Below, one piece after another: positions 3,232 to 22,858 of a stretch of 27,499 nucleotides of DNA (position 1 is the first letter of the stretch; every line of letters begins with the position of its first letter). This DNA is from a virus. The notes under the pieces were generated by a model that made no database searches, was not told the origin of the DNA, and was given only the letters and a program-made list of their open reading frames with translations. Location: the IMG/VR virus record IMGVR_UViG_3300036770_002525, positions 1-27,499 of that record; one strand, written 5' to 3'. A program made the translations under genes and the position numbers.

Positions 3232-3987
3232 TTAAATATACCTAGGTATCGACATATATCTTTCCACATTAAAAACGATATCCTCTATTTTATCTTTTTC
3301 CACTTTTTCTAAAACCATGTTTTTATTTTTAAAAACATTTTCTGGGCTTCCAAAAATATTCATCATGGAGCGTAAATATTCTTTATAGAGAAAGATAGCG
3401 TTAATATTAAAGTATGGGTGCGATGGCTTTAACTTATACCCGTCTGTTTGTAAAAATATTATTTTATTAAAAATAGAGTTTTTATAACAAAATTCAAAGT
3501 CGAAGGCCAGCGGAATATCTATGCTTTCATTTATTTTAATATTTTCATTAACAGCAGTTGCGGGAATCACCCATGCTCCACCCATTGGCCAAGTTTCGTA
3601 TCTTTTGTCTATATCGTAATATAATCCAACAATGTCTGTCTCATCAATTATTGAGGAGACTATACTATTCATAGAGTCCTCGTTGTCGATCATATATATT
3701 TTATTTACGGGCTTTATTAAACAGTTATAATTTTTTGATAATTCTATTGCCAAATTAATAGAAAACTTTGAAATAATAACGCTGTCTATTATTACATAGA
3801 CTTCTTCGGACCCGCTTGTGATGGTATCATTGATAATTTTTGTGTAATTAACTCCAGAGTCATTACTAATATTTAAAGCCTTTACATTAAATCCAATGTC
3901 ATTATAATATTTTTTATAGAAATTAAATTTTTCTTTATCGTGAAAGTCTTCTGTATATGGAATATATATGTTATGGGTATACGACAT
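3232..3987 (-). CDS. Putative GT-A type glycosyltransferase
   Basis: 251 residues. The N-terminus is a Rossmann-like start (HNIYIPYTEDF, then a long helix and GFNVKALNI), followed by SGVNYTKIINDTI and EEVYVIIDSVII, which resembles the region around the DxD metal site of GT-A enzymes, though here it reads D-S-V. Further on, GGAWVIPATAVNENIKINESIDIPLAFDFEF (about residues 136-166) looks like the acceptor-side GG-x-V-x-P block of small GT-A transferases. The family call is by resemblance only and could be wrong. The start overlaps the end of the preceding GlcNAc-transferase gene by 17 bases, with GGGAGG about 12 bases upstream, so the two are probably co-translated. Very AT-rich, with high Asn/Ile/Lys content, like the rest of the island. 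Confidence 0.5.
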   Translation of the reverse strand: MSYTHNIYIPYTEDFHDKEKFNFYKKYYNDIGFNVKALNISNDSGVNYTKIINDTITSGSEEVYVIIDSVIISKFSINLAIELSKNYNCLIKPVNKIYMIDNEDSMNSIVSSIIDETDIVGLYYDIDKRYETWPMGGAWVIPATAVNENIKINESIDIPLAFDFEFCYKNSIFNKIIFLQTDGYKLKPSHPYFNINAIFLYKEYLRSMMNIFGSPENVFKNKNMVLEKVEKDKIEDIVFNVERYMSIPRYI

Positions 3988-5035
3988 TTAATTTTGGCAC
4001 CTCCCACCAAGGAGATGTTTTTCTATTGATTAAATCAATATCTGAGTATTTTAAATACCCACGAATAGATCGTGGAAGATAGCCTAAACTTTTGCTATTA
4101 AATAAATTACTAACTATATCATTATCGTCAAATGACTTATTTAAAATCTCTTGTTCTAGACCGACTGTTTTTTTTATATAATTTTCGTATATATGGTTTC
4201 GTATTTCTGATGAATCATAGTCCTCTAGATTTTCATCTAGGTATGCTCTTTTTCCGCCCCCGTATTTGTGATAAGCAATATTAGTTTTATACCAAACCAA
4301 ATTATATCCTCTGGCATAGGACAAAGATGACTGATAAAATTCTTCTCCCCAAAAATTTATAGATTTATCTAAATTTAGATTATATTTAACTAGCCATGGG
4401 TCTGACTCTGTAAAATAAAAATGTGCAGATATTTTTTTTGCAGGAAGATATTCGTTATCTAACATATATTGTTTTAAAAAATTTAGATCCTGTTCATTGA
4501 GTTTTTTATCATTTGGGAGAGGATGATTTAAACTAGATGCTGGCAAATCCCCTATTAGTCTATGGTAAAAATCAAAAAACGGCCATCTATTAACGATATC
4601 ATCAGGCTCCTCATCTTTGAATGGACTCAGATATGTTGTTAAGACTCTTCTTTTCCCAAAGAATTTTCTAGAGTTTTCATACATATCTATAATTTTAGAA
4701 TCCCAGTCACGCTCAAAGTCCGTGTGGGAATCTATAGACAAAAAATATTTTTCGTTATTAAAATGTTTTACTGGGCTGAGTCTACCTGCGCCAACCCCTG
4801 GGTATCGATGCCATGGCTGAATATCATATTTAACATTTTTGAATTTGTTGTCTAACTGATTTTTTATATGAAAAAAAAATGGTTTTTTATTATTTTTTAT
4901 ATCATTATTTTTCCAAAATATTGTTGTGGCAATAGATATTTTATTTGTATTTTCTGAGTTATCCATAATTCTTTCTATGGTTGATATAAATTCAACATCA
5001 TTCATAGTTGGAACACAGACAAAAATATTACTCAT
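3971..5035 (-). CDS. GlcNAc-transferase-type glycosyltransferase
   Basis: 354 residues. It matches the protein GlcNAc-transferase family (PF11397, Skp1 GnT-like): MSNIFVCVPTMND at the N-terminus, a YPGVGAGRLSP segment (79-89), the metal-binding motif in KYFLSIDSHTDFERDWD (Asp102, His104, Asp106, Trp111), SAHFYFTESDPW (203-214), FWGEEFYQSSLSYARGYNLVWY with the conserved G-E-E (230-232), and a late AYHKYGG His. All key motifs are intact, so catalysis is expected. Enzymes of this family add GlcNAc to hydroxyproline or Ser/Thr of proteins, or to glycans, in the cytoplasm. The start is ATG 5035, which overlaps the preceding stop by 8 bases; the 17 residues further upstream in the same frame lie inside the upstream gene. 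Tyr/Asn/Lys-rich, very AT-rich. A protein acceptor is inferred from the neighbours. Confidence 0.8.
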   Translation of the reverse strand: MSNIFVCVPTMNDVEFISTIERIMDNSENTNKISIATTIFWKNNDIKNNKKPFFFHIKNQLDNKFKNVKYDIQPWHRYPGVGAGRLSPVKHFNNEKYFLSIDSHTDFERDWDSKIIDMYENSRKFFGKRRVLTTYLSPFKDEEPDDIVNRWPFFDFYHRLIGDLPASSLNHPLPNDKKLNEQDLNFLKQYMLDNEYLPAKKISAHFYFTESDPWLVKYNLNLDKSINFWGEEFYQSSLSYARGYNLVWYKTNIAYHKYGGGKRAYLDENLEDYDSSEIRNHIYENYIKKTVGLEQEILNKSFDDNDIVSNLFNSKSLGYLPRSIRGYLKYSDIDLINRKTSPWWEVPKLNVVYP

Positions 5036-5741
5036 ATGTTTTTTTACTCCACATGTATTTTCTATACCCGCCGTAAAACTCATCAAACACTTTATTATGT
5101 ACTCGGTTCATTTCTTTTTCTATAACTTCGTATTTAGCGATCTTTGATCGCCAATTCTCTCTTTTAAAGAAAAACATTTGATAGAGAGGTGTTCCTTTTT
5201 TAATTGTACCTTCAAAACCAGTCTTTAATAGAAATGGTATAGACCCGCCTATCCACCATCTGTCGGTATCAATTATTCCGTCAACAGTTCTAAAAGGTAG
5301 ATCATATTGATTAAATGGGTGGGAGTAATACGTTGACCACCCTTTTGGAGTTTTTGGCTCCCAATGAGTATACCAGTTTAAATGATTTTCGTATCTTGAA
5401 TAGTAATTTTTATCCTTTGGGATTATTCTATTAGGCCCTTCACGACTCATAATAATAGGTATTTGATTATTTGCAGAAGAGACTGTTATGAACCCATCAT
5501 CATCGCTTTTAAAACTAATATCACACCAGGCCTCTTGAATGTATCCAGCAGAAAATGTATCTAAAAGAGGTATGCATTGTTTTTCAGTAGAGTCCGCCCT
5601 AGAACCACAAATACTTGGAGTATGACCTCCCTGAAATGGTGGAAGATTCTTATACCAGTCTGGGATATAGTTTTTAGCAGGCTTTGGTGGAGTGATATAA
5701 TCTGATGCATATTGACTTTGGGGAATCCATTCTACTATCAT
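5028..5741 (-). CDS. Tandem paralog 3 of the PDWYK family (DUF6065-like)
   Basis: 237 residues; third (last transcribed) of three adjacent paralogs. Shared blocks: PxPAKNYIPDWYKNLP (19-34), KQCIPLLDTFSAGYI (54-68), a W-x-x-HWEPKTPKGWS block (123-136), DLPFRTVDGIIDTDRWW (147-163), PF..GFEGTIKKGTP (169-185) and FFKRENWRSK (191-200). Three aromatic W/Y positions and the KTPKG and DTD motifs are invariant. The layout resembles the DUF6065 family as I remember it; the biochemical function is unknown. No membrane segment or signal peptide, so cytoplasmic or virion. The stop overlaps the start of the GlcNAc-transferase gene (8 bases), and its own ATG overlaps the previous stop (ATGA), with AAGGAG just upstream. 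Context suggests a part in surface-protein modification. Confidence 0.75.
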   Translation of the reverse strand: MIVEWIPQSQYASDYITPPKPAKNYIPDWYKNLPPFQGGHTPSICGSRADSTEKQCIPLLDTFSAGYIQEAWCDISFKSDDDGFITVSSANNQIPIIMSREGPNRIIPKDKNYYSRYENHLNWYTHWEPKTPKGWSTYYSHPFNQYDLPFRTVDGIIDTDRWWIGGSIPFLLKTGFEGTIKKGTPLYQMFFFKRENWRSKIAKYEVIEKEMNRVHNKVFDEFYGGYRKYMWSKKTYE

Positions 5742-6460
5742 GAAAACTCCTTCTTAGACCAGCACTCTTTTCTGTATCCAGCAGTAGCGTGCCTTCTTAC
5801 CTTGCTCTGTAATACATCATGCTCCATCTGTTCTATTGATCGTGAATTTGATTTCCAATTTTCCCTTTTAAATGGAATCATGCTCATCATGGGTGTACCC
5901 ATGGGGATTATACCCTCAAAACCTTTTTTGATTATAAATGGATGATTTCCAGTTATATACCATTCATCAGTATCCATAACACCTGATACGGTATAGAAAG
6001 GAAGTTCTGGCCTATTAATTGGATGTGTATATAAAGTGCTATATCCTTTAGGCGTTTTTGCCTCCCATTGAGTCATCCATGTAAACTCTGTTTGATAGAA
6101 GTCTTGTGGAATCGGCATAGAATTTACTCTTGGGCCACCTCTATTTCCAATCAAATCAAACATCTTGTGGGTGTAAACATTGACACTACTTCCATCAAAG
6201 TTTTTTTCAACCATAACATCACATGGGGTGACCATGATATACCCGAATGTAAAACTATCGAAAAACGGCATACATTGTTTAAATGTAGCGTTCTGATTAC
6301 CATGGCCGTCCTCAAATGCAGGACATTTTGTTTCATGTGTTGGCATATCTTTATACCAATCAGGAATCATGGATTTTGAAGGAACTGGTGCTTGGGTGGC
6401 CTCATATATGAATTCATTTTTTGCCACAAAAGTAATATCGTTATATTTTTTATAAAACAT
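5738..6460 (-). CDS. Tandem paralog 2 of the PDWYK family (DUF6065-like)
   Basis: 240 residues, the middle copy of the triplet. It has the same ordered blocks: SKSMIPDWYKDMP (28-40), ATFKQCMPFFDSFTFGYI (58-75), QWEAKTPKGYSTLYTHP (131-147), LPFYTVSGVMDTDEWY (153-168), GFEGIIPMGTPMMSMIPFKRENW (180-202). The C-terminus ends in a Tyr/Arg/Lys segment much like its left neighbour (GYRKECWSKKEF versus GYRKYMWSKKTYE), so these two are the closest pair. Overlaps on both sides (ATGA downstream, TAATG upstream) indicate a translationally coupled string. Function unknown; no catalytic residues can be named with confidence. Confidence 0.75.
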   Translation of the reverse strand: MFYKKYNDITFVAKNEFIYEATQAPVPSKSMIPDWYKDMPTHETKCPAFEDGHGNQNATFKQCMPFFDSFTFGYIMVTPCDVMVEKNFDGSSVNVYTHKMFDLIGNRGGPRVNSMPIPQDFYQTEFTWMTQWEAKTPKGYSTLYTHPINRPELPFYTVSGVMDTDEWYITGNHPFIIKKGFEGIIPMGTPMMSMIPFKRENWKSNSRSIEQMEHDVLQSKVRRHATAGYRKECWSKKEFS

Positions 6461-7155
6461 TATTTGAACTCTTTTCTATTCCACCAATTTATTTTATATC
6501 TATTCATAAATGTTTTATTATGAAAGTTGGTAATTTTTTTATATTCATCTGAATTGAATGGGCCCTTTTTAGATTTAAAAGAATTTCTTTTAAATGGTAT
6601 CACTTGGACCATTGGAGTATTATACGGGATGACTCCCTCAAATGCGCTCTGGATAAAAAATGGAAAATTTATTGTTAGGGGAAACCTATCTGTATCTACG
6701 ACGCCTTCAATTATTTTAAACGGTAGATGGTGTCCTATAGGGGTAACGAACATACAACTATAACCCTTTGGCGTCTTTATCTGCCATGGATTTATCCATT
6801 TAAACACATCTTTTCTGTAAAAAGATGGTATTGGGTATCCAGGTATCTGCTCTTTTGGATGACCCTCTACTGCTGGATAATCTAATCCTTCAATGCTCCA
6901 GGTTACTGAATCTTTTGTAAAAAATGTGTCCGTCCATGTTTTTATAACATAGCCGTTAGATATAGCATCCATTACGGGAACACATTTTTTTACTGTTTCA
7001 TTTGGCCGTCCTTTTGAGTATGTAATTTTATCATCAGTAAACGATGGCATTTTTTTATACCATTCGGGGAGATTTTTTATAGCGGGGCTAGGAAACTCTG
7101 CCGTATCACTTAATGTTTCATCTATGAGGGTAAATTCTATATTTTTATTTAGCAT
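6460..7155 (-). CDS. Tandem paralog 1 of the PDWYK family (DUF6065-like)
   Basis: 231 residues, first transcribed and most divergent of the three. Blocks: PAIKNLPEWYKKMPSF (24-39), TVKKCVPVMDAISNGYVIKTW (54-74), WQIKTPKGYSCMFVTPIG (124-141), LPFKIIEGVVDTDRFP (144-159), AFEGVIPYNTPMVQVIPFKRNSFKSK (171-196). Glu replaces Asp in PDWYK and the FKRENW motif is changed to FKRNSF, so if there is an active centre it may differ in specificity from its sisters. The gene starts at ATG 7155 with GGAAT 7 bases upstream, inside the end of the preceding gene (7-base overlap). Duplication and divergence inside a glycosyltransferase/dioxygenase island suggests a family adapting to varied acceptors or sugars; this is inference. 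Confidence 0.75.
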   Translation of the reverse strand: MLNKNIEFTLIDETLSDTAEFPSPAIKNLPEWYKKMPSFTDDKITYSKGRPNETVKKCVPVMDAISNGYVIKTWTDTFFTKDSVTWSIEGLDYPAVEGHPKEQIPGYPIPSFYRKDVFKWINPWQIKTPKGYSCMFVTPIGHHLPFKIIEGVVDTDRFPLTINFPFFIQSAFEGVIPYNTPMVQVIPFKRNSFKSKKGPFNSDEYKKITNFHNKTFMNRYKINWWNRKEFK

Positions 7156-8393
7156 CTTTTATTCCAACTCAAAGTATTTTCATAAGTAGAAAAATTATAC
7201 ATGGATATAAAAAAATTTATACCGTCTATAAGTCTATTAGAGATTATAGAATCTCTAACTTTAAATTTCTTTTCTTTCCAGTCTACTGCTAGCAGTTCGT
7301 CAAATTTTTTATTGTTATAAACATTATTATGAATATTTCTCTGAATCAACTCAGCGCCCTGAGATTCTTTGTAATCTGACTCAGATATCAGATCCCTGGG
7401 ACTTTTTTCCTGTTGAATAAATTCTGAATTATCGTCATACATAATGTATGTTGGAATAAATCTAAATGAGATCAGGGATACATTTTTATTTACAAAGTTA
7501 ATAAATGAATAGAAATTAAATTGATCTTTGTCTATTAATGTATTATCCGATCTATTATTTTTTATGTACACATCTCCGTAAGAGAAGCAAAAATCTGTAT
7601 AAAATCCTGAGGCAATTGCAATATATTCGTCCTTAACAAATTTTCTGCTGTTAAATTTGACAAAGTTGTTTATTTGTAAGAACTCTTCACCCTCCATTAC
7701 TTTATCGATTTGGCTTATATGATCATGGGTGCTATGATCTTCTGCCGCCTCCTGAGACCTGCTAAACATAATATTATCTTTGTTAACAAAGTGACTGTAT
7801 CCAGATATAGGAATTCTAGCCCCATCATAATCTTCTCTTTGCATAGATTTTTTTGTTTTATGATTAGTAAAATAAGAGAATCCCTCCACAACATTGTCAT
7901 GGGGTAAATACAATCTTGGCTCTGCTGTTACAATAAAGTCTCCGTCAAGGCTACTAGATAAATTATTATACTGTGTTATAAGAATGTCATCCCAGTTTGG
8001 ACAAAATTCAGATCTTGATGATATTGACATGTAATAATTCTCTTTATTATATTGAGAATCTGCAATACTTTTAAGTTCGCCAAAAGTTGTCTCATTCTTT
8101 AGATCTATAATTTTTATTCTTAGATTTTTAATATTTTCTTCCATATCTTTTAGGGGCTTGACCCATTGATGAACGTATGATGAAAAAAATTCTGTTAATG
8201 CCACCGAAATAAAAATATTATTAGGCCTTTTTGCATTCTCAAGTAGGGAGGAAATTGTATTGATAATACTTTCATCTCTATATGAGACAATTGAAACAAA
8301 TATAGAACTTCTTTCTATATCATCTACTGGTCTATTAAATATCTTCCCTGAGTACGGCTCATAGTTTGTCGGTATGTTCACCTTAAATCCCAA
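7149..8393 (-). CDS. Divergent GlcNAc-transferase-like protein, key motifs changed
   Basis: 414 residues with the fold signature of the same GT family as the gene at 3971: SSIFVSIVSYRDESIINTISSLLENAKRPNNIFISV (29-64), the usual N-terminal strand-helix pair, and YYMSISSRSEFCPNWDD (120-136), which aligns with the metal-binding segment. Here the two Asp residues are replaced (IDSHTDF becomes ISSRSEF) and the later G-E-E segment seems to be replaced by K-D-Q near DKDQFNFYSF. A canonical metal-dependent transfer is therefore doubtful; it may be a pseudoenzyme, a binding or scaffold partner, or have moved its catalytic residues. The C-terminal 60 residues are extra. The start is TTG 8393, overlapping the upstream gene by 16 bases, with AGGA upstream. 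Confidence 0.6.
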   Translation of the reverse strand: MGFKVNIPTNYEPYSGKIFNRPVDDIERSSIFVSIVSYRDESIINTISSLLENAKRPNNIFISVALTEFFSSYVHQWVKPLKDMEENIKNLRIKIIDLKNETTFGELKSIADSQYNKENYYMSISSRSEFCPNWDDILITQYNNLSSSLDGDFIVTAEPRLYLPHDNVVEGFSYFTNHKTKKSMQREDYDGARIPISGYSHFVNKDNIMFSRSQEAAEDHSTHDHISQIDKVMEGEEFLQINNFVKFNSRKFVKDEYIAIASGFYTDFCFSYGDVYIKNNRSDNTLIDKDQFNFYSFINFVNKNVSLISFRFIPTYIMYDDNSEFIQQEKSPRDLISESDYKESQGAELIQRNIHNNVYNNKKFDELLAVDWKEKKFKVRDSIISNRLIDGINFFISMYNFSTYENTLSWNKRC

Positions 8394-8884
8394 TCCTGAA
8401 AATATATATGTTCTGGCTCCGCATAATGCATAAATAACATTAAAACTTTATTTTTGGGGGCAATTTCAGGCCTCCAATGTTCTTGATCTTCTCCGTAGAA
8501 ACATAACGCATTGTTTTTATTAAGAATATATTCTTTGCCCTCAACTACCAGCGGCCACACAGACTCTGAATATAGACAAATGTCAAATGTGTATGTGCAG
8601 GCATTAGTATCTTTATGTTTTTCTAACCTAGAAGAATTTTTATTATATAAAGCAAGTAAAGAATATGTAGGAAGAAGTGTTTCGCTTTCAAATTGTTCTC
8701 TAGCGTAATTTAATTTAACCCAAGAAATTCTATGTAAAAGTTCTGATGAATAAACATATCTGTCAAAAAACCCCTCGTATATCCATTTACTTTTTTCAAT
8801 TTTATTGATACTATTCATAATTTTACTGTATTCTTTTTCATTGAAAAAATTATTTACTATCCACGGATCTTTTATCTTTACCAC
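8378..8884 (-). CDS. 2-oxoglutarate/Fe(II) dioxygenase, short form
   Basis: 168 residues, a minimal double-stranded beta-helix dioxygenase. The iron ligands are visible as His90-Lys-Asp92 (LEKHKDTNACTYTFDICL) and distal His136 (GEDQEHWRPEIAP), with Lys146 ten residues later in the place of the 2-oxoglutarate-binding basic residue. FYGEDQEHWRPE matches the distal segment of prolyl-hydroxylase-like enzymes. The substrate is not shown by sequence; a protein prolyl or lysyl side chain is plausible given the nearby collagen-like fibre. GTG start at 8884 overlapping the preceding dioxygenase by 7 bases; the 3' end overlaps the next gene by 16 bases. Soluble, no signal peptide. Confidence 0.75.
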   Translation of the reverse strand: MVKIKDPWIVNNFFNEKEYSKIMNSINKIEKSKWIYEGFFDRYVYSSELLHRISWVKLNYAREQFESETLLPTYSLLALYNKNSSRLEKHKDTNACTYTFDICLYSESVWPLVVEGKEYILNKNNALCFYGEDQEHWRPEIAPKNKVLMLFMHYAEPEHIYFQDWDLR

Positions 8885-9525
8885 TTATTTACCTGAGTCC
8901 ATGGTGGTCCGAACCAAGTTACAATAGCATACTTATATCCATCAAATACTGGTCTAGCAGCATGTTCATAGGCATAATTTGATGGAAATAGTGCAAGGGC
9001 AGGGTTTTCAGGTTCAATAGTATAGTCAAAGTTGGTGAAATACGTTCCTCCCCCGATGTAATCTCCAGGATTTAAATATATTAAACCCGATAGGACTCTA
9101 TGCTCTGCTCCTGGCCCATAGTCAACGTGGGGCTTATACTGTCTTCCTGGACCATATTTTAATAACTGAAGGCCTTCATCGAAGGCTATATTTATTCTGT
9201 ATTTTTCGGAATAGTGTCTAACAAAAATAGAAAGTTTTTCTCTTATAAAAACAACTACATCGTTTATTCCGCAGGGGCATGGATTGTTGTCTGCGTCCCA
9301 ATGCTCATCTATATTCATCGTCACATTAGATCTAACAGCGCCGCCAGGGTCTCCTGCGCCAATAAGAGCACCAGAATAAGATAGTGGACATAGTGAACTT
9401 TCACTTGCATCTTCAAAAATTTTTATTATTTTTTTAGATGTATCTACACTAAATATATTTTCATATATATCTATTGCGCCAGCAACAGTTTTTTCATCTG
9501 CCCCTGATAGCATAACATTGCTCAC
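8878..9525 (-). CDS. 2-oxoglutarate/Fe(II) dioxygenase, prolyl 4-hydroxylase-like
   Basis: 215 residues with the full prolyl-hydroxylase-like core: LLKYGPGRQYKPHVDYGPG (His133, Asp135), RVLSGLIYLNPGDYIGGGTYF (143-163), then ALALFPSNYAYEHAARPVFDGYKYAIVTWF with distal His188 and Lys198 for 2-oxoglutarate. The order and the H-to-K spacing of ten residues are those of active enzymes, so hydroxylation of a protein or small-molecule substrate is expected. A CPCG pair (83-86) is an extra feature. GTG start at 9525 with AGGAAAAG upstream; 9 bases after the preceding gene. Of the three relatives here this is the most canonical, and the best candidate for a fibre prolyl hydroxylase. Confidence 0.85.
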   Translation of the reverse strand: MSNVMLSGADEKTVAGAIDIYENIFSVDTSKKIIKIFEDASESSLCPLSYSGALIGAGDPGGAVRSNVTMNIDEHWDADNNPCPCGINDVVVFIREKLSIFVRHYSEKYRINIAFDEGLQLLKYGPGRQYKPHVDYGPGAEHRVLSGLIYLNPGDYIGGGTYFTNFDYTIEPENPALALFPSNYAYEHAARPVFDGYKYAIVTWFGPPWTQVNKW

Positions 9526-9534
9526 AAACTTTTC

Positions 9535-10209
9535 CTATCTCATATAGGAAGACAAAAGGTTTGGGCCTTCGTCCTCAAGACCATTTTCTTCAGATAGAAA
9601 GTCTTTTCCACCATTAAAAAATGTTGTTAATACTATTTTCCTACCTGACATTATAGTATCATGTTTTTTAGAAAACAAGTAATTTGATGGATAAAAGATA
9701 ATACTTCCTTTTGGAATTTTATCTATTTTTAAATTATTTAAATATGGCCACTCAACGCTTCCGCCAATATAATCATCATCTATAATAACTTCCACACACA
9801 CCTGCCTACTAAAAGGAGTATTTTTTATTTTATCATTCTCAGTAAAAGACCTATTAGGGTTAAAGGTATAATTTTGCGATCCTGCATAATCCACATCTAT
9901 AAAAATATTCTCTTGCCATTGAATCGTATGAATTGCTTCTTCGTATAAATCGCAGTACCTTGCAAAACAACTTAATATTGTTTTTTGAATTTTTTCTGCT
10001 AAATTTTTTTTATTTATTTTGTTTAAACCGTATAAAAAAGTATTTTTTACTTTAGATAATTCATAATACTCCTCATATTCAAATAGATGCTTATATGTAT
10101 CATAAATATCTGATATATCGTTTTCTGTAATATCTAAAATATTTTCATAAACCACTATTCCTGGATATAAAATTTTTTGCTGTTTATCCAGGGAAAAAGA
10201 ATCTATCAT
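9535..10209 (-). CDS. Dioxygenase-fold relative lacking the HxD iron motif
   Basis: 224 residues. Its C-terminal half lines up with the neighbouring dioxygenase: QVCVEVIIDDDYIGGSVEWPYL against RVLSGLIYLNPGDYIGGGTYF, and GSIIFYPSNYLFSKKHDTIMSGRKIVLTTFF against ALALFPSNYAYEHAARPVFDGYKYAIVTWF. The 2-oxoglutarate-type Lys is kept, but the position of the distal His is Lys with a His two residues later, and no H-x-D is found where the first two iron ligands should be (the stretch reads NRSFTENDKIKN). It is therefore probably not a standard enzyme. Start chosen at ATG 10209 because GAGGAG lies 11 bases upstream; ATG 10230 is the alternative. It overlaps the previous gene by 26 bases. Confidence 0.6.
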   Translation of the reverse strand: MIDSFSLDKQQKILYPGIVVYENILDITENDISDIYDTYKHLFEYEEYYELSKVKNTFLYGLNKINKKNLAEKIQKTILSCFARYCDLYEEAIHTIQWQENIFIDVDYAGSQNYTFNPNRSFTENDKIKNTPFSRQVCVEVIIDDDYIGGSVEWPYLNNLKIDKIPKGSIIFYPSNYLFSKKHDTIMSGRKIVLTTFFNGGKDFLSEENGLEDEGPNLLSSYMR

Positions 10210-10696
10210 TTGCCGCTGACTCCTCTTCATATTTTTTATAAATAATTATACTATCTGAAAATACTATATAGTCTTTTGTTGATTTTTTATATACTATCTC
10301 AACGGGGTACTCTCCGTAAGAATCCAATGAAAGTTCTATTTCATAAATATATGAATAGACTTCTTCGAACGATTTAGAGAAAAGATAATCCCTTTTATTT
10401 AAATCCTTATCATCTAATTTATATAAATTGATAAATATTCCGTCTCCATCTTCTTTGCTAAAAAACTCGTCAATCCAGACAACTTTAAACATATGTTTTT
10501 CTTCATATACAAGGTAGTCGTCTTTAATGTGCCTAAATTCAGGTATAGTGATTTCTTGAGACTCAGATCTATCTTTTATAAGGTGCTCTATTATGTCTGA
10601 TTCTCCGTGGATAATTTGATTAAATTTATTATTAACAGAATCTTCAATATAATCATCTATATCTTTTTCTATTGGAACGTATAAATACTTTATCAT
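10184..10696 (-). CDS. Hypothetical protein at the head of the modification island
   Basis: 170 residues, not recognised. Acidic and Tyr/Ile/Lys-rich, with alternating hydrophobic strands in the second half (VVWIDEFFSKEDGDGIFINLY, then YPVEIVYKKSTKDYIVF), no membrane segment, no signal peptide, no cysteine motif. It starts 5 bases after the glycine-rich fibre paralog ends and overlaps the next gene by 26 bases, so it belongs to the same leftward string. There is no clear Shine-Dalgarno sequence. Position between fibre and dioxygenase genes could mean a chaperone or adaptor, but nothing in the sequence shows this. Confidence 0.65.
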   Translation of the reverse strand: MIKYLYVPIEKDIDDYIEDSVNNKFNQIIHGESDIIEHLIKDRSESQEITIPEFRHIKDDYLVYEEKHMFKVVWIDEFFSKEDGDGIFINLYKLDDKDLNKRDYLFSKSFEEVYSYIYEIELSLDSYGEYPVEIVYKKSTKDYIVFSDSIIIYKKYEEESAANDRFFFPG

Positions 10697-10700
10697 AGGA

Positions 10701-11366
10701 CTACACTACAAACTGTAGTATGCTCCCGTCTTCATAACCATCAACATTTATGTTTATACTACTTGGAACTATTCTTGATGAACAATATATTACAACTCCT
10801 CCACCAGTTGAATAAAAATTTCCATCGTGGAATCCATTAGCATATATTGTTCCGTTTCCAGATACCCTTCTTGCTGATAATATAACAACCCCTCCTCCTG
10901 AGTTTACTCCATCTCCCGCGCCGCCATTTATTCCTAAAGGCTGCTGCTGAGAGGCATTAAGAATATATCCATCTACAGCATGTTCAGGTTTATAAAAATA
11001 CGATGCGCTCCCAAATATAGAATCAATATCCAGGGCGGAGTAACTAGCACTACTTCCACCAAGACTATTGGATGCAGACGTAATACTTCCACCAAAAATT
11101 GTTCCTGTGTTAGAAGACCCGTCTATTAAGCCAATGCTAGTGCTTGCAGATTGATTTTCTGATCCAAAAAATACTAAATTATTGCGAACAAAAATTTTAT
11201 ACCCATTGGTATCAATATGCACTCCATTTAATACTTTTAAATTGTTCCAATACATGTCCCTTGACAACGAAAATGAAGACGAAGCCGTATAATTACCGTC
11301 TTTACCAGAACCATAAATTGGATCTGGAAAATTTTTATCAGTATCCGAATAATTTTTAATTGGCAC
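10701..11366 (-). CDS. Glycine-rich fibre protein, short paralog of the collagen-like fibre
   Basis: 221 residues. The N-terminal 75 residues align with the start of the 538-residue protein upstream (MPIxx...YGxGxDGN, LxRDMYxNNLxVxxGxxxDTNGYxxFVxNxL), and the C-terminal part has two copies of the GGGVVI-x-S-x-R block (GGGVVILSARRVSGNGTIYANG, GGGVVIYCSSRI). This block is common in glycine-rich phage fibre proteins. It lacks the collagen triplets and TTYN repeats, so it looks like the fibre with its variable middle removed, or a second, simpler fibre. GTG start at 11366 overlapping the previous stop by 11 bases. Probably a virion surface protein; no enzymatic motif. Confidence 0.75.
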   Translation of the reverse strand: MPIKNYSDTDKNFPDPIYGSGKDGNYTASSSFSLSRDMYWNNLKVLNGVHIDTNGYKIFVRNNLVFFGSENQSASTSIGLIDGSSNTGTIFGGSITSASNSLGGSSASYSALDIDSIFGSASYFYKPEHAVDGYILNASQQQPLGINGGAGDGVNSGGGVVILSARRVSGNGTIYANGFHDGNFYSTGGGVVIYCSSRIVPSSININVDGYEDGSILQFVV

Positions 11367-12972
11367 TTTCTACCGCCTCATTTTTTATAATTATAACAGT
11401 TCCTGAAGTTGGAAATCCTTCATCACCCGTACCCGCTGCGGCCCTAGTTTCTATTCCATTCGGAATATCTGACTCGGTAATAACTAGAACCACCCCACCT
11501 CCACCAGCATATCCATTAAGGCCTGGAGACCCTGGAAGACCAGCGCTACCGACACCGCCTGCGCCGCCAGCGCCACCGGAACCACCTGCTCCTCCGGCAA
11601 AATACTGTGCTGGTTCAAGGGAGAATTGATCTGGCTGCAATGCATAATTATACCCATAAGAAAGATTTCCAGGAATAATTGCATTATAGGTGGTTCTTGG
11701 ATTTCCTCCTGTAGGATTAAAATAACCATTAAAAAGAATTGGGACAAAATAATAATAATTACCAGCAAAAGTTCCTGGAGAAGGGCTGTTATAGGTTGTT
11801 ACTGGACTATTATAAGTTGTTGTAGGTCTATTATATGTTGTCGGATTTCTAGTAGATGGCCTATATCTTACAGATGCGGGGCCTAATGTCCTTGGATTAG
11901 CATATCCTGGTATAGCATTTCCTGGAGATGTTCTGGCAGTTCCTGCTGCCGTCCTAGCAGTTCCTGGGGTTGGGCTATTATATGCCACAAAAAGTCCTGG
12001 AATTTGATAATATGCAGAAAAAACATACCCAGGCTGGATTGCATTATATGTAGTTCTTGCATTTCCTCCTGTAGGCGGATTAGTGAAAGAATATTCTACT
12101 GCATAATTATATGCAGCCTGAGAGAGATAATTATACGCTGCTTGAAAGAAATCTGGCGCTGGAGCCCCAGGGTTTCCCGGACTTCCTGGGCTTCCAGGGT
12201 TTCCTGGACTTCCTGGATATCCAGGGTTTCCTGCCTCACCAGATTTACCATCCGCCCTTATAGTGCCAGAACCTATAATATTTCTAGCAGAAATGATAAC
12301 TACTCCTCCGCCAGCGCCTCCTGCGCCGCCCTCGCCTCCTAAACCGCCTTCACCACCAACCCCAGGAGATCCTGGTGAACCAGGAGATCCTGAATAGCCC
12401 CTGCCTCCAGGAACTCCAACGGTGGATTCAAATCCTGGACGAGAACCTACAGATCCAAGAGATCCTGCCCCTCCTGGTGAGCCAGAAGTAAATGAACCAC
12501 TTTGCCCTGTTTCCCCCACGCTTCCAGAAGACCCTCCGCTTCCACCCATAAGAAATCTTAAAGTGTTTGATATTGCATCAAATTTATATCCTGCAATAGC
12601 CTGTGAAAAATTATAAAACTCTGCCTCTCCAAAGAAGTTTTCACCGGGATTAAGCCCTCCGTTGCCACCAAGAGTATCGGAGGCCTTTATTCCAGATAAA
12701 GCCCCACCTAAAATACTACCGACAGACGTTGTATCTGCCAGCCTGCCAATAACAGCGCTGGAATCTGCCATGTTTAATGTATTTTTTACAAATACTCTGT
12801 ATCCATTAGTATCAAGTTGCGCCCCACCCATTACTGTTAAATTATTGTAGTACATATCTCTGTTTAGAACAATTGTCCCTGTGATAATAACGTTTCCGTC
12901 TGTTCCTGGACCATAAACCGCTAGACCAGCCCTAGTATTAAAATTATTCGACGGAAATTCTTGTATCGGCAT
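11356..12972 (-). CDS. Collagen-like fibre protein
   Basis: 538 residues, a probable trimeric virion fibre or adhesin. Layout: conserved N-terminus (1-140) shared with the next gene; glycine-rich, imperfect G-X-Y tract (142-223); GGGVVIISARNIIGSGTIRADG block; a perfect run of ten G-X-Y triplets (242-271), eight of them G-X-P, the position hydroxylated in collagens; then Tyr/Thr/Asn/Pro-rich low-complexity sequence (272-455) with five TTYN motifs; a second glycine-rich tract (459-492); and a C-terminal GGGVVLVITESD block. Collagen-like phage fibres are known; the interrupted tract resembles them. ATG 12972 overlaps the preceding stop (TAATG). Downstream genes encode dioxygenases and glycosyltransferases that may modify it. 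No signal peptide or membrane segment. Confidence 0.85.
   Translation of the reverse strand: MPIQEFPSNNFNTRAGLAVYGPGTDGNVIITGTIVLNRDMYYNNLTVMGGAQLDTNGYRVFVKNTLNMADSSAVIGRLADTTSVGSILGGALSGIKASDTLGGNGGLNPGENFFGEAEFYNFSQAIAGYKFDAISNTLRFLMGGSGGSSGSVGETGQSGSFTSGSPGGAGSLGSVGSRPGFESTVGVPGGRGYSGSPGSPGSPGVGGEGGLGGEGGAGGAGGGVVIISARNIIGSGTIRADGKSGEAGNPGYPGSPGNPGSPGSPGNPGAPAPDFFQAAYNYLSQAAYNYAVEYSFTNPPTGGNARTTYNAIQPGYVFSAYYQIPGLFVAYNSPTPGTARTAAGTARTSPGNAIPGYANPRTLGPASVRYRPSTRNPTTYNRPTTTYNSPVTTYNSPSPGTFAGNYYYFVPILFNGYFNPTGGNPRTTYNAIIPGNLSYGYNYALQPDQFSLEPAQYFAGGAGGSGGAGGAGGVGSAGLPGSPGLNGYAGGGGVVLVITESDIPNGIETRAAAGTGDEGFPTSGTVIIIKNEAVESAN
11678..11715. repeat. 38-base direct repeat, copy A
   Basis: Nearly identical (3 mismatches by eye) to 12038-12075, spaced exactly 360 bases, which is 120 codons. 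It encodes the TGGNPRTTYNAI segment in the middle of the collagen-like fibre. The in-frame spacing means that recombination between the copies would remove or duplicate 120 residues without a frameshift. Confidence 0.85.
11786..11848. repeat. Three tandem 21-base repeats coding for TTYNxPx
   Basis: Three imperfect 21-base units (11786-11806, 11807-11827, 11828-11848) encode three heptads TTYN-R-P-T, TTYN-S-P-V and TTYN-S-P-S at residues 378-398 of the collagen-like fibre. They are protein-coding repeats, in frame, and of a kind that changes copy number by slippage. Confidence 0.8.
12038..12075. repeat. 38-base direct repeat, copy B
   Basis: Partner of 11678-11715. It encodes TGGNARTTYNAI at residues 301-312 of the collagen-like fibre. 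Confidence 0.85.
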
Positions 12973-13307
12973 TAGGCTACCTCTACTCCAGAAATATGAA
13001 TGTTTAACGATGCAGATGCACTAGCGAACCCGTGAATTGAAGATCCTGTTGGTAAGACGCTCTTAATTTCAATACTCAGGGTGTTGTTTGCACTAATCAA
13101 TACCCCTGGAAACATTGCATTAGATGTATCGGGGGTATCTCCGCTCGGGACAAAATATAAAGTAGCCTCTAAATCTGTTGATGTTGTATTTGCTACTAAA
13201 ATTTGCTTAACAATTGCTTCAGTCAGGGCGGGGACGGTGTAAAGGGCGCTTGCGGAGCCTGGAAGAGATCTCGCGGAAACTAATTCCTTAAGACTATAAG
13301 TTGACAT
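12972..13307 (-). CDS. Small virion/tail protein with beta-sandwich pattern
   Basis: 111 residues. The pattern LYTVPALTEAIVKQILVANTT (22-42), a-x-L-YFVPSGDTPDTSNAMFPGVLISANNTLSIEIKSVL and a final ASLNIHISGVEV is a common small tail-associated protein of actinobacteriophages, probably a beta-sandwich accessory decorating fibres or the tail tip. The exact role is unknown. Strong AAAGGAGG ribosome site 5 bases before the ATG and an extended -10 box 20 bases upstream, so a transcript likely begins here and continues into the collagen-like fibre (TAATG overlap) and the modification island. Confidence 0.7.
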   Translation of the reverse strand: MSTYSLKELVSARSLPGSASALYTVPALTEAIVKQILVANTTSTDLEATLYFVPSGDTPDTSNAMFPGVLISANNTLSIEIKSVLPTGSSIHGFASASASLNIHISGVEVA

Positions 13308-20889: not shown

Positions 20890-22824
20890 TTATGCCGAAG
20901 TGATATCAACCGTTTCACAGTACCCTGCTGCACATGCGAGATCCTGGCTCCCCGTAGTACCATCTGAAGATTCATAATAGGTCAGCCAGGTCCAATCGAT
21001 ATCTTTCGGAGTTTTTTCTAATAATTCATTATACTCCGATTCGGTTATGTCCTGATAAGGTGCTTGCTGATATGTGTGATCTGAATATGGCAGAAAAGAC
21101 ACTCCAGAAAGTTCATCCATATGATCATATACCCAGGCCCCTACTGCCATCCATTCATTCTCCTTGACAGATACCGTGATGGAAGGCTTATGCTCTGACC
21201 AATGGCGTTGATATATAAGCCAAAGTTCTAAATGCTCAACGGCGGTGAGATCTTTTCTAGTGATAGCATCTTTTGGGGCTTTAATAGGAAAGGTGAAGAC
21301 CGTTGTATCTGATGGCTTCATTACGTCTGGTTCTGACAAAATACCAAAATCTTTAAGCATAGTTGTAATTGGATCTTTGTTATCTCCACGAATTGTACGA
21401 GCGTAGAATTCATTATGCCAAGGATGCATACCAGATGATACACCGACCAACTGTGACACCGTTCCAGAAGGCTTTACACAGGTAATGGCGGCGGCTGGAT
21501 TAATAGATAGGTCTCCTGCATACTTAGCATTTACTTCTACTGCCTTTTCTCTCATAGCATCTAGCCACTCAATTAGTTTATCGTGCCCCTTGCTTCCATT
21601 TAGCACATTATGTCCTAATTGTCCGGTTAATGAAACACCTAGAAGTCTTTCATCCTCACAGTTCTTTTGCCATTGCCTACGAAGATATTTGAATCTGGTA
21701 AATGTTGACTGAAATGTTCCAAGGATAGTGGCAATTTCTACTTTCTCTAGTAGATCATCTAAATTATCGCTCTCTCTTACTACCACTTCAGTAAGGTTGC
21801 AAAATTCAAATGGCTTAAGAATAATCTCGGAGCAGGGGTTCGTGCCAAATTCTGCTGTTGCATCTCTGCGACCATTCTTAGAAGCAACTTTACGAGCGGC
21901 GTCCCTAGAGAAGATCCCGCGCTCCCCACTCTTAGAGTCATACAACGACTTCCATTCAGCCATAAATACTTCCATGGTTGGCTTTGTTTCATAGACGGCA
22001 GAATTATTTGCGAGGGCTCTTTGACCATTGTATTCCCACCATGAACCAGACTTTGCAGCAGCCATATTACGATCTTCAAGATCTGATAATGAAATCATTG
22101 CTGAACGTCTAACTCCTCCGACCACAACAACTTCTGCAATCTTGCACATAATGTCGTGGGCCTCTAATGGAGTAAGTTTTCTACCAGCAGCAGATTTTAC
22201 TGTCTCTACAGTAAATTTAAACAATCTTTCTAATGGCTCTGGCCCAGAGGCTCTACCACCAAAAGTCTTTAATCTCGCTCCTGCTGGTCGAACATTAGAT
22301 ACGTCCCATGATGGAATTTGCCCCTGATATAAAAGAGCGATAAGTTCTCTTAAAGCCTTGGCCCATCCAGCCTTAGAGTCATCGACAACAATTACAGTAG
22401 AAGAATTTTCAAAATGTTCGTTAACTACAGGAAGTTGGTTTACATACTTTGATTCTACCGAATACCCAACCCCCGTACCACACATAAGAATATACATAGC
22501 CTCATCGAATGATCTTAGAGAATCTACTGGAAGATATGAGCAATTATAAAGACAAGTATTGTCTCTTTCTAATGCTGGTCCCGCAGTCATTAGGCCACGC
22601 ATTGATGGCATAACTTTTGTATTAAGGATAAAGTTTTCAATCTTATCCTTAAGAATAGGGTCTACCTTATAACTGTTATGTTTTTCTAGTGATTCACAGA
22701 TAAAGTTGGTGAATCTACTGACGGTTTCATGCCAGTCCTCTCTACGATTTTCTTCATCAATCCATCTTGCGTAGCGAGTCTTGTGGATTACTTGCTGGTA
22801 GGCGGTTGGCAACGAAACTGTCAT
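20890..22824 (-). CDS. nrdJ: Ribonucleoside-triphosphate reductase, adenosylcobalamin-dependent (class II)
   Basis: Makes dNTPs from NTPs with a B12-generated thiyl radical; no second subunit is needed. 644 residues from ATG 22824 (GGGAGT 4 bases upstream; an in-frame ATG at 22857 is unlikely). The cysteines match Lactobacillus leichmannii RTPR in type and spacing: Cys91 (NTCLYNC), thiyl Cys331 in GTNPCSEIIL with Glu333, Cys342 in FCNLTEV eleven residues later, and the shuttle pair Cys631/Cys636 near the C-terminus. GGVRRSAMISLSD (236-248) and VKPSGTVSQL (450-459) complete the signature. About 95 residues shorter than the classic enzyme; no intein. It sits among tail genes and starts next to the divergent intergenic region. 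No B12 riboswitch was found upstream. Confidence 0.95.
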   Translation of the reverse strand: MTVSLPTAYQQVIHKTRYARWIDEENRREDWHETVSRFTNFICESLEKHNSYKVDPILKDKIENFILNTKVMPSMRGLMTAGPALERDNTCLYNCSYLPVDSLRSFDEAMYILMCGTGVGYSVESKYVNQLPVVNEHFENSSTVIVVDDSKAGWAKALRELIALLYQGQIPSWDVSNVRPAGARLKTFGGRASGPEPLERLFKFTVETVKSAAGRKLTPLEAHDIMCKIAEVVVVGGVRRSAMISLSDLEDRNMAAAKSGSWWEYNGQRALANNSAVYETKPTMEVFMAEWKSLYDSKSGERGIFSRDAARKVASKNGRRDATAEFGTNPCSEIILKPFEFCNLTEVVVRESDNLDDLLEKVEIATILGTFQSTFTRFKYLRRQWQKNCEDERLLGVSLTGQLGHNVLNGSKGHDKLIEWLDAMREKAVEVNAKYAGDLSINPAAAITCVKPSGTVSQLVGVSSGMHPWHNEFYARTIRGDNKDPITTMLKDFGILSEPDVMKPSDTTVFTFPIKAPKDAITRKDLTAVEHLELWLIYQRHWSEHKPSITVSVKENEWMAVGAWVYDHMDELSGVSFLPYSDHTYQQAPYQDITESEYNELLEKTPKDIDWTWLTYYESSDGTTGSQDLACAAGYCETVDITSA

Positions 22825-22858
22825 TTTTACTCCCATTAAAATATAAAATATAGTCACC

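What the first reader, a model, noticed from the sequence alone, without database searches (positions are those of the whole stretch)
3232..12972. Candidate phage system for hydroxylating and glycosylating its own collagen-like fibre
Seen: a fibre gene with ten perfect G-X-Y triplets (residues 242-271, eight G-X-P) lies at the head of a leftward string that contains two intact 2OG/Fe(II) dioxygenases (His133/Asp135/His188/Lys198 and His90/Asp92/His136/Lys146), one intact GlcNAc-transferase-type enzyme, another putative GT-A enzyme and three paralogs of an unassigned family, linked mostly by overlaps of 1-47 bases. Known: Pro in the third position of G-X-Y is the usual target of prolyl 4-hydroxylase, and PF11397-type enzymes include Skp1 hydroxyproline GlcNAc-transferase. 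Inference: the enzymes first hydroxylate Pro, then add sugar to the fibre (or its Ser/Thr/Tyr-rich relatives), stabilising it or varying its surface. A dedicated hydroxylase-plus-glycosyltransferase set for a phage tail fibre is, as far as I know, not described.
Basis: partly seen in the sequence, partly recalled or inferred. Interest (0 to 1): 0.88.

Follow-up and report, generated by a model that had tools for sequence, protein, structure and literature searches.

The report
Phage adhesin with dedicated modifying enzymes
Many uncultured water-living phages carry a glycine-rich attachment protein right next to a matching set of enzymes (hydroxylase-like ones plus a sugar-adding, halogen-adding or methyl-adding one), which suggests, though it is not yet shown, that these viruses chemically decorate their own host-attachment protein.

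Summary
In detail: a glycine-rich fibre with ten G-X-Y triplets (eight G-X-P) heads an overlapping leftward gene run containing two intact prolyl-4-hydroxylase-like 2OG oxygenases, two PF11397 glycosyltransferases (one without its DxH-like motif), a degenerate third oxygenase and three paralogs.

The whole cassette, fibre included, recurs in related phages, in one case at another genome position. The broader pattern is new: of 69 distinct homologous fibres, all 57 carrying a low-complexity insert (Tyr/His/Asn/Pro-rich) have these enzymes adjacent, against 0 of 12 without the insert. The partner enzyme tracks insert type: glycosyltransferase (11/11), FkbM methyltransferase (30/30) or Trp-halogenase (16/16). 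These types are clade-bound, so this is about three events, not 57.

The collagen part is not supported. Glycine periodicity is fixed, but Pro in Y varies from 3 to 9 of 10. Most module-bearing fibres lack a G-X-Y run, and one long G-X-Y fibre has no enzymes. AlphaFold packs the run inside a confident single-chain Gly-rich block.

Best reading: the enzymes tailor the adhesin's hypervariable insert (confidence 0.55). The three paralogs have a dUTPase-like fold. No cultured relative or virion chemistry exists, so modification itself is unproven.

The parts
11356..12972 (-). Glycine-rich adhesin/fibre (538 aa): N-domain, two Gly-rich blocks flanking a hypervariable low-complexity insert
   Evidence: N-domain 66-86%, insert 19-52% identical to orthologs
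12160..12249 (-). Ten G-X-Y triplets (residues 242-271)
   Evidence: Gly fixed (10/10 in 6 of 7 sequences), Pro in Y 3-9 of 10; AF2 pLDDT about 95 within one chain
11608..12150 (-). Hypervariable Tyr/Asn/Thr/Pro-rich insert (residues 275-455), proposed substrate region
   Evidence: AF2 pLDDT under 50 for nearly all of 283-451; short tandem repeats in DNA
12972..13307 (-). Small conserved protein just upstream of the adhesin in the window group and the L114-type group
10701..11366 (-). Second, short fibre protein sharing the N-domain
   Evidence: adjacent to fib1 in module-bearing loci
10184..10696 (-). Conserved protein of unknown function in the cassette
9535..10230 (-). Degenerate 2OG-oxygenase paralog (HxD...H lost in window group, intact in a Tyr+His-group member)
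8878..9525 (-). 2OG/Fe(II) oxygenase, prolyl-4-hydroxylase-like (H133, D135, H188, K198)
8378..8884 (-). Second 2OG/Fe(II) oxygenase (H90, D92, H136)
7149..8393 (-). PF11397 glycosyltransferase homolog without the DxH-like motif (probable pseudo-enzyme)
6460..7155 (-). phrog_7084/DUF6065-related protein, dUTPase-like fold by homology (D6460)
5738..6460 (-). phrog_7084/DUF6065-related protein, dUTPase-like fold (D5738, modelled)
5028..5741 (-). phrog_7084/DUF6065-related protein, dUTPase-like fold by homology (D5028)
3971..5035 (-). PF11397 (GlcNAc-type) glycosyltransferase with DxH-like motif
3232..3987 (-). Weakly glycosyltransferase-like protein, variable among relatives
   Evidence: (phrog_1721 E=0.007)

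Best explanation
The island is an exchangeable host-recognition cassette: a glycine-rich adhesin plus the enzymes that tailor it after translation. The adhesin has a constant N-domain and two Gly-rich blocks (probably intrachain polyglycine/polyproline-II packing) that present a hypervariable, repeat-rich insert. Prolyl-4-hydroxylase-like 2OG oxygenases oxidise side chains of the insert (Pro, Asn, Tyr or His; which one is open). A partner enzyme then adds a second group: a PF11397 glycosyltransferase in the window type. Related cassettes use a flavin halogenase or an FkbM methyltransferase instead. The dUTPase-fold proteins and degenerate paralogs probably act as assembly or recognition subunits. 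Shown here: gene content, motifs, predicted folds of D and of the fibre scaffold, linkage, and the match of enzyme set to insert type. Inferred: that modification happens, its order and its target.
For: Cassette kept as a unit across divergent phages and at two genome positions. 57/57 insert-bearing fibres have D, 55/57 a 2OG gene, 57/57 a partner enzyme; 0/12 insert-free homologs have any (earlier cut of the same data). Partner enzyme follows insert type: GT 11/11, FkbM 30/30, halogenase 16/16. In module-bearing records of 63-203 kb, nearly all matches to the main oxygenase profile lie at the cassette (one exception, G023:112878), and each halogenase does. Halogenases keep GxGxxG and the Lys motif, mostly WxWxIP. 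Nearest solved relatives of the oxygenase are peptide-acting P4Hs. Insert is the fastest-changing part of the adhesin. Close relatives (portal 87%) have a different Gly-rich adhesin plus 2OG, halogenase and D at the same locus.
Against: Types are clade-bound: three changes of insert type and three of enzyme type on the tree, so the match rests on about three events. The insert-type labels and cut-offs were set after seeing the data. D and 2OG genes also occur in phages with quite different neighbours; of 57 further D loci only 20 have a 2OG gene. In the window group Tyr+His enrichment is modest (11-19% per 80 aa; background 99th percentile 17.5%). No cultured relative of the fibre and no virion proteomics.
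Confidence: 0.55

Rival explanations
1. One reading: the oxygenases hydroxylate Pro in the Y position of the collagen-like G-X-Y run, and the glycosyltransferase adds GlcNAc to hydroxyproline.
For: Nearest solved relatives of ox8878 are P4Hs, including the Bacillus anthracis enzyme (3itq/5hv0, organism from own knowledge); PF11397 includes the Skp1 hydroxyproline GlcNAc-transferase type (own knowledge; pathway papers found); eight G-X-P in the window.
Against: Pro in Y is only 3 of 10 in two window-type orthologs (L110, L108) that keep the cassette; 30 Tyr+His fibres have the oxygenases and no G-X-Y run of 5 or more; a 25-triplet fibre (L164) has none of the enzymes; a G-X-Y run of 10 or more does not predict the enzymes (p=0.09); AF2 packs the run in a single-chain block.
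Confidence: 0.12
2. The enzymes modify the host surface receptor recognised by this adhesin (superinfection exclusion or receptor masking), so they travel with the matching adhesin.
For: Phage glycosyltransferases near tail fibres in pelagimyophages are read this way (PMC7029224); it also predicts adhesin-enzyme linkage.
Against: P4H-like oxygenases and flavin halogenases are peptide/aromatic chemistries rather than glycan ones (established family knowledge); no membrane or lipid-linked-sugar genes were recognised in the window cassette; it does not explain why enzyme type follows the insert's composition.
Confidence: 0.2
3. The enzymes serve metabolism or DNA: 2OG level control, nucleotide pool or DNA modification, and lie near the fibre by chance of late-gene placement.
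For: D has a dUTPase-like fold and in haloviruses lies beside thymidylate synthase or ribonucleotide reductase genes; cyanophage 2OG oxygenases have been linked to 2OG/NtcA control (PMC3037559).
Against: Nearly all matches to the oxygenase profile in module-bearing records sit at the adhesin cassette; the cassette moves with the fibre; homologous fibres without the insert lack all of them.
Confidence: 0.1

Closest known systems
Skp1 prolyl-4-hydroxylase plus Gnt1 (PF11397-type) pathway of Dictyostelium/Toxoplasma
   Same: P4H-like 2OG oxygenase and a PF11397-family GlcNAc transferase acting in sequence on one protein
   Different: Eukaryotic oxygen-sensing pathway on one Pro of an E3 subunit; here a phage adhesin, several oxygenases, and the partner enzyme differs between cassettes
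Mimivirus collagen-modifying enzymes (L230 lysyl hydroxylase and collagen glycosyltransferases)
   Same: Virus encodes hydroxylase and glycosyltransferase for its own collagen-like protein
   Different: Eukaryotic giant virus and lysine chemistry; here P4H-like enzymes in tailed phages, and the collagen-like run is not the shared feature
Glycine-rich (polyglycine-II) phage adhesins such as Salmonella phage S16 gp38 (own knowledge)
   Same: Gly-rich blocks presenting variable segments at a fibre tip
   Different: No fold or sequence match to it was found here; S16 gp38 is not known to me to carry modifying enzymes
Viral flavin halogenase VirX1 of a cyanophage
   Same: Phage-encoded PF04820 enzyme, detectable homolog (6qgm)
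   Different: Here the gene lies inside an adhesin cassette with a His-rich insert; VirX1's natural substrate is not established (own knowledge)
E. coli prophage collagen-like tail fibres (EPclA and relatives)
   Same: Phage fibre with G-X-Y repeats
   Different: Recombinant EPclA is not glycosylated and E. coli has no prolyl hydroxylation enzymes (PMC3368898)

Membership tests
2OG/Fe(II) oxygenase, P4H-like | HxD...H iron site and Lys for 2OG | tested here: met
   8878-9525: H133, D135, H188, K198 invariant in 7 orthologs; 8378-8884: H90/D92/H136 conserved
2OG/Fe(II) oxygenase, P4H-like | Curated family match | tested here: met
   8878-9525 PF13640 53.1 bits vs 27 cut-off; 8378-8884 stays below its Pfam cut-off
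2OG/Fe(II) oxygenase, P4H-like | Hydroxylates peptidyl proline | not testable with these tools
   Needs assay; nearest solved relatives are P4Hs
Collagen-like triple-helical protein | Pfam Collagen above gathering score | tested here: not met
   20.1 vs 27.2 bits
Collagen-like triple-helical protein | G-X-Y periodicity conserved in orthologs | tested here: met
   Gly 10/10 in six of seven sequences
Collagen-like triple-helical protein | Three-chain triple helix | tested here: inconclusive
   AF2 monomer models the run at pLDDT about 95 inside a one-chain block; a trimer was not modelled
PF11397 (GlcNAc) glycosyltransferase | Curated match and DxH/DxD-like motif | tested here: met
   3971-5035: 74.1 bits, SIDSH; 7149-8393 matches but lacks the motif
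dUTPase / dCTP deaminase superfamily (D proteins) | dUTPase jelly-roll fold | tested here: met
   AF2 pLDDT 94.6; the top Foldseek and VIA rows are dUTPases, best VIA Z 9.3 (rmsd 5.2, 121 aligned); 2py4 Z 9.0, rmsd 2.8, 116 aligned
dUTPase / dCTP deaminase superfamily (D proteins) | Pfam dUTPase match above cut-off | tested here: not met
   One of 70 members at E=0.063; one place at 16.1 vs 22 bits. So dUTPase-fold, not filed as a dUTPase
Polyglycine-II adhesin (S16 gp38 type) | Structural match to a solved polyglycine-II domain | tested here: inconclusive
   No usable Foldseek match; one VIA row, an ice-binding protein, Z 6.5, rmsd 3.1, 105 aligned
Flavin-dependent halogenase (partner in His-insert cassettes, not in window) | PF04820 match, GxGxxG, Lys motif, WxWxIP | tested here: met
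   E about 1e-100; GxGxxG and Lys motif in the His-cassette members listed, WxWxIP in most; the pattern was not found in L136, L138, L149, L151, L154

The most novel reading that the evidence does not exclude
Tailed phages treat their adhesin like a giant ribosomal natural-product precursor: a constant scaffold recruits a lineage-specific set of tailoring enzymes (hydroxylases with a glycosyltransferase, halogenase or methyltransferase) that chemically diversify a hypervariable repeat core, extending receptor binding beyond the twenty amino acids.
Probability: 0.3. Interest if true: 0.92.

Novelty: new variant of a known kind. Interest (0 to 1): 0.74.

Why it matters
2OG oxygenases, halogenases and glycosyltransferases are widely reported in aquatic phages as auxiliary metabolic genes with unclear roles; one survey calls viral use of prolyl 4-hydroxylase 'cryptic' (PMC9301287). 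If these enzymes tailor the phage's own adhesin, a large set of such genes gains a concrete substrate, host-range prediction from protein sequence alone would be incomplete for these phages, and phages would be a source of enzymes that hydroxylate, halogenate or glycosylate repeat proteins.

Tried and rejected
Collagen Pro as the shared target: rejected. Cultured phages with this fibre: none; one conserved protein of the Tyr+His cassette also had none. D as a Fe(II) oxygenase: its invariant columns hold no HxD...H and its fold is dUTPase-like. D as a replacement for a missing dUTPase: no canonical dUTPase was found in 15 records, but records may be fragments, so left open. Tyr/His richness as a rule for every D/2OG-linked fibre: not true for L015, L016, L018, L019, L023. 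Foldseek on the fibre model gave nothing usable, so no polyglycine-II relative was seen. Alignment A4 was too diverse for a contig scan. Papers on fibre hydroxylation in phages: none found in the held library, which misses most subscription journals.
Full report
WHAT IS THERE. The window is a fragment of an uncultured tailed phage (a 27,499-base virus record). Its portal protein is about 51% identical to those of Streptomyces phages. On the minus strand, tail-fibre genes run down to the portal, and between them lies the island. Fibre 11356-12972 has ten G-X-Y triplets at residues 242-271, eight of them G-X-P, beyond 5000 shuffles. Below it follow a short fibre paralog, a small conserved protein, three 2OG-oxygenase relatives, two PF11397 glycosyltransferases, three phrog_7084 proteins and a weakly GT-like protein. 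The oxygenase at 8878-9525 has an intact H133/D135/H188/K198 site, invariant in seven orthologs, and its best solved relatives are prolyl 4-hydroxylases. The one at 8378-8884 keeps H90/D92/H136. The one at 9535-10230 has lost the site in the window group but keeps it in another group. GT 7149-8393 lacks the DxH-like motif that GT 3971-5035 has.

THE CASSETTE IS A UNIT. Relatives of the portal show a constant backbone with a variable island. More distant relatives (L036-L083) have the large fibre gene beside the portal block and no island. Close relatives have either this cassette (L008, L011, L026/L086, L031/L084, G001, G004) or different ones. In G019 the same cassette, collagen-like fibre included, sits tens of kilobases from the portal. 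A scan with the main oxygenase gave 49 loci at 40% identity or more; all carry the conserved gene block around the oxygenase, and the fibre pair is there wherever the locus extends far enough upstream.

THE WIDER PATTERN. A scan with the fibre found homologs in other phage groups. Among 69 distinct fibres of at least 400 aa with 5 kb or more downstream, 57 carry a low-complexity insert between the Gly-rich blocks. All 57 have a D gene, 55 a 2OG gene, and all a partner enzyme. The 12 homologs without such an insert have none. Two of these 12, L166 and L173, fell in the Tyr/Asn/Thr/Pro bin by composition and were moved to the insert-free class because they lack a D gene, so that class is partly defined by the outcome. 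The partner follows insert type: Tyr/Asn/Thr/Pro inserts, PF11397 glycosyltransferase 11/11; Tyr+His inserts, FkbM methyltransferase 30/30; His-rich inserts, tryptophan-halogenase family 16/16. The halogenases keep GxGxxG and the Lys motif, and most keep WxWxIP. In module-bearing records of 63-203 kb nearly all matches to the oxygenase profile fall at the cassette; the clear exception is G023:112878. Halogenases occur once each, only in the four His-insert records checked.

HOW STRONG THAT IS. Insert type and enzyme type each need only three changes on the fibre tree. The association is therefore about three co-occurring switches plus long retention of linkage, not 57 independent cases. Thresholds for insert types were chosen after seeing the data. 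A view without such bins (maximum Tyr+His fraction in 80 residues) ranks all enzyme-bearing fibres at or above all enzyme-free ones, with ties at 0.11.

WHY NOT COLLAGEN PROLINE. Gly at every third position is kept (10/10 in six of seven sequences), but Pro in Y is 8, 7, 8, 8, 3, 9 and 3 of 10. G-X-Y runs of 10 or more do not predict the enzymes (20 of 21 with a D gene against 39 of 51 without such a run, p=0.09). Tyr+His fibres have the oxygenases without any such run, and L164 has a 25-triplet run without enzymes. AlphaFold2 models residues 144-277 and 456-530 at pLDDT about 86-96 as a mostly non-helical, strand-poor block in one chain and leaves nearly all of 283-451 disordered. This fits polyglycine/polyproline-II packing, but no solved structure matched and a trimer was not modelled.

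THE PARALOGS. D5738 models at pLDDT 94.6, and its best structural matches are dUTPases (best VIA Z 9.3; Foldseek E 5e-4). A motif-3-like G-[VI]-x-D-x-D, a P-x-G-x-S and a G-T-P-x-x-Q are conserved. Sequence matches to Pfam dUTPase stay below cut-off. 42 of 70 members match DUF6065 at E<=1. The family is common in phages, occurs in haloviruses next to both nucleotide genes and the tail-fibre cluster, and elsewhere with halogenases or a carbamoyltransferase. I take it as an accessory or recognition subunit, at low confidence.

MECHANISM. Most likely the oxygenases hydroxylate side chains of the hypervariable insert and the partner enzyme adds a second group, so the adhesin's receptor-binding surface is chemically extended. 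Gene linkage, motifs and matching of enzyme set to insert are shown; the reaction, residue and order are inferred. The main rival is modification of the host receptor; it explains linkage but not the match to insert composition, and halogenases and P4H-like enzymes are unlikely glycan modifiers.

KNOWN OR NEW. Virus-encoded hydroxylase plus glycosyltransferase for a virus's own collagen is known in mimivirus (papers found), and P4H plus GlcNAc transfer in Skp1. Published readings of these enzymes in aquatic phages are metabolic, regulatory or surface-directed (PMC3037559, PMC7029224, PMC9301287). I found no description of an adhesin-linked tailoring set, in a library that lacks most subscription journals. 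I rate it a new variant of a known kind until chemistry is shown.

Noticed in passing
L114:1419-8598, L118, L122: Proteins with up to 87 consecutive G-X-Y triplets, rich in Thr/Asn and almost without Pro in Y (GNTGATGLTG), lie directly upstream of the adhesin cassette in the L114-type phages.
   Followed up: no
L018:765-1700, L019:2190-3065, L023:3611-4564: At the same locus in close relatives a different Gly-rich adhesin (GGTITTAGGYRIHTF...VVVRY) is paired with 2OG oxygenase(s), one or two tryptophan-halogenase homologs and a D protein.
   Followed up: partly
L262:8278-16311 (Synechococcus phage S-SCSM2R): Annotated cluster of 2OG oxygenases, several glycosyltransferases, AHBA synthase, a radical SAM maturase and an amidinotransferase, resembling a natural-product tailoring locus.
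   Followed up: no
window 9535-10230 and 7149-8393: Two catalytically degenerate paralogs (oxygenase and glycosyltransferase) are kept in the window-type cassettes examined, which suggests subunit or scaffold roles.
   Followed up: partly
window 20890-22857: A B12-dependent-type ribonucleotide reductase gene lies inside the structural/tail-fibre gene run, and this placement recurs in many relatives.
   Followed up: no
L087:7902-8774 (HRTV-2), L088:7902-8786 (HF2): Haloarchaeal tailed viruses carry one D-family (dUTPase-fold) gene between nucleotide-metabolism genes and the tail-fibre cluster.
   Followed up: partly
L194:4783-6111 and other Tyr+His fibres: The insert holds HxH-like clusters (such as HTHYHWH in L194) next to NYSYGYSY repeats, a possible metal-binding feature.
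   Followed up: no
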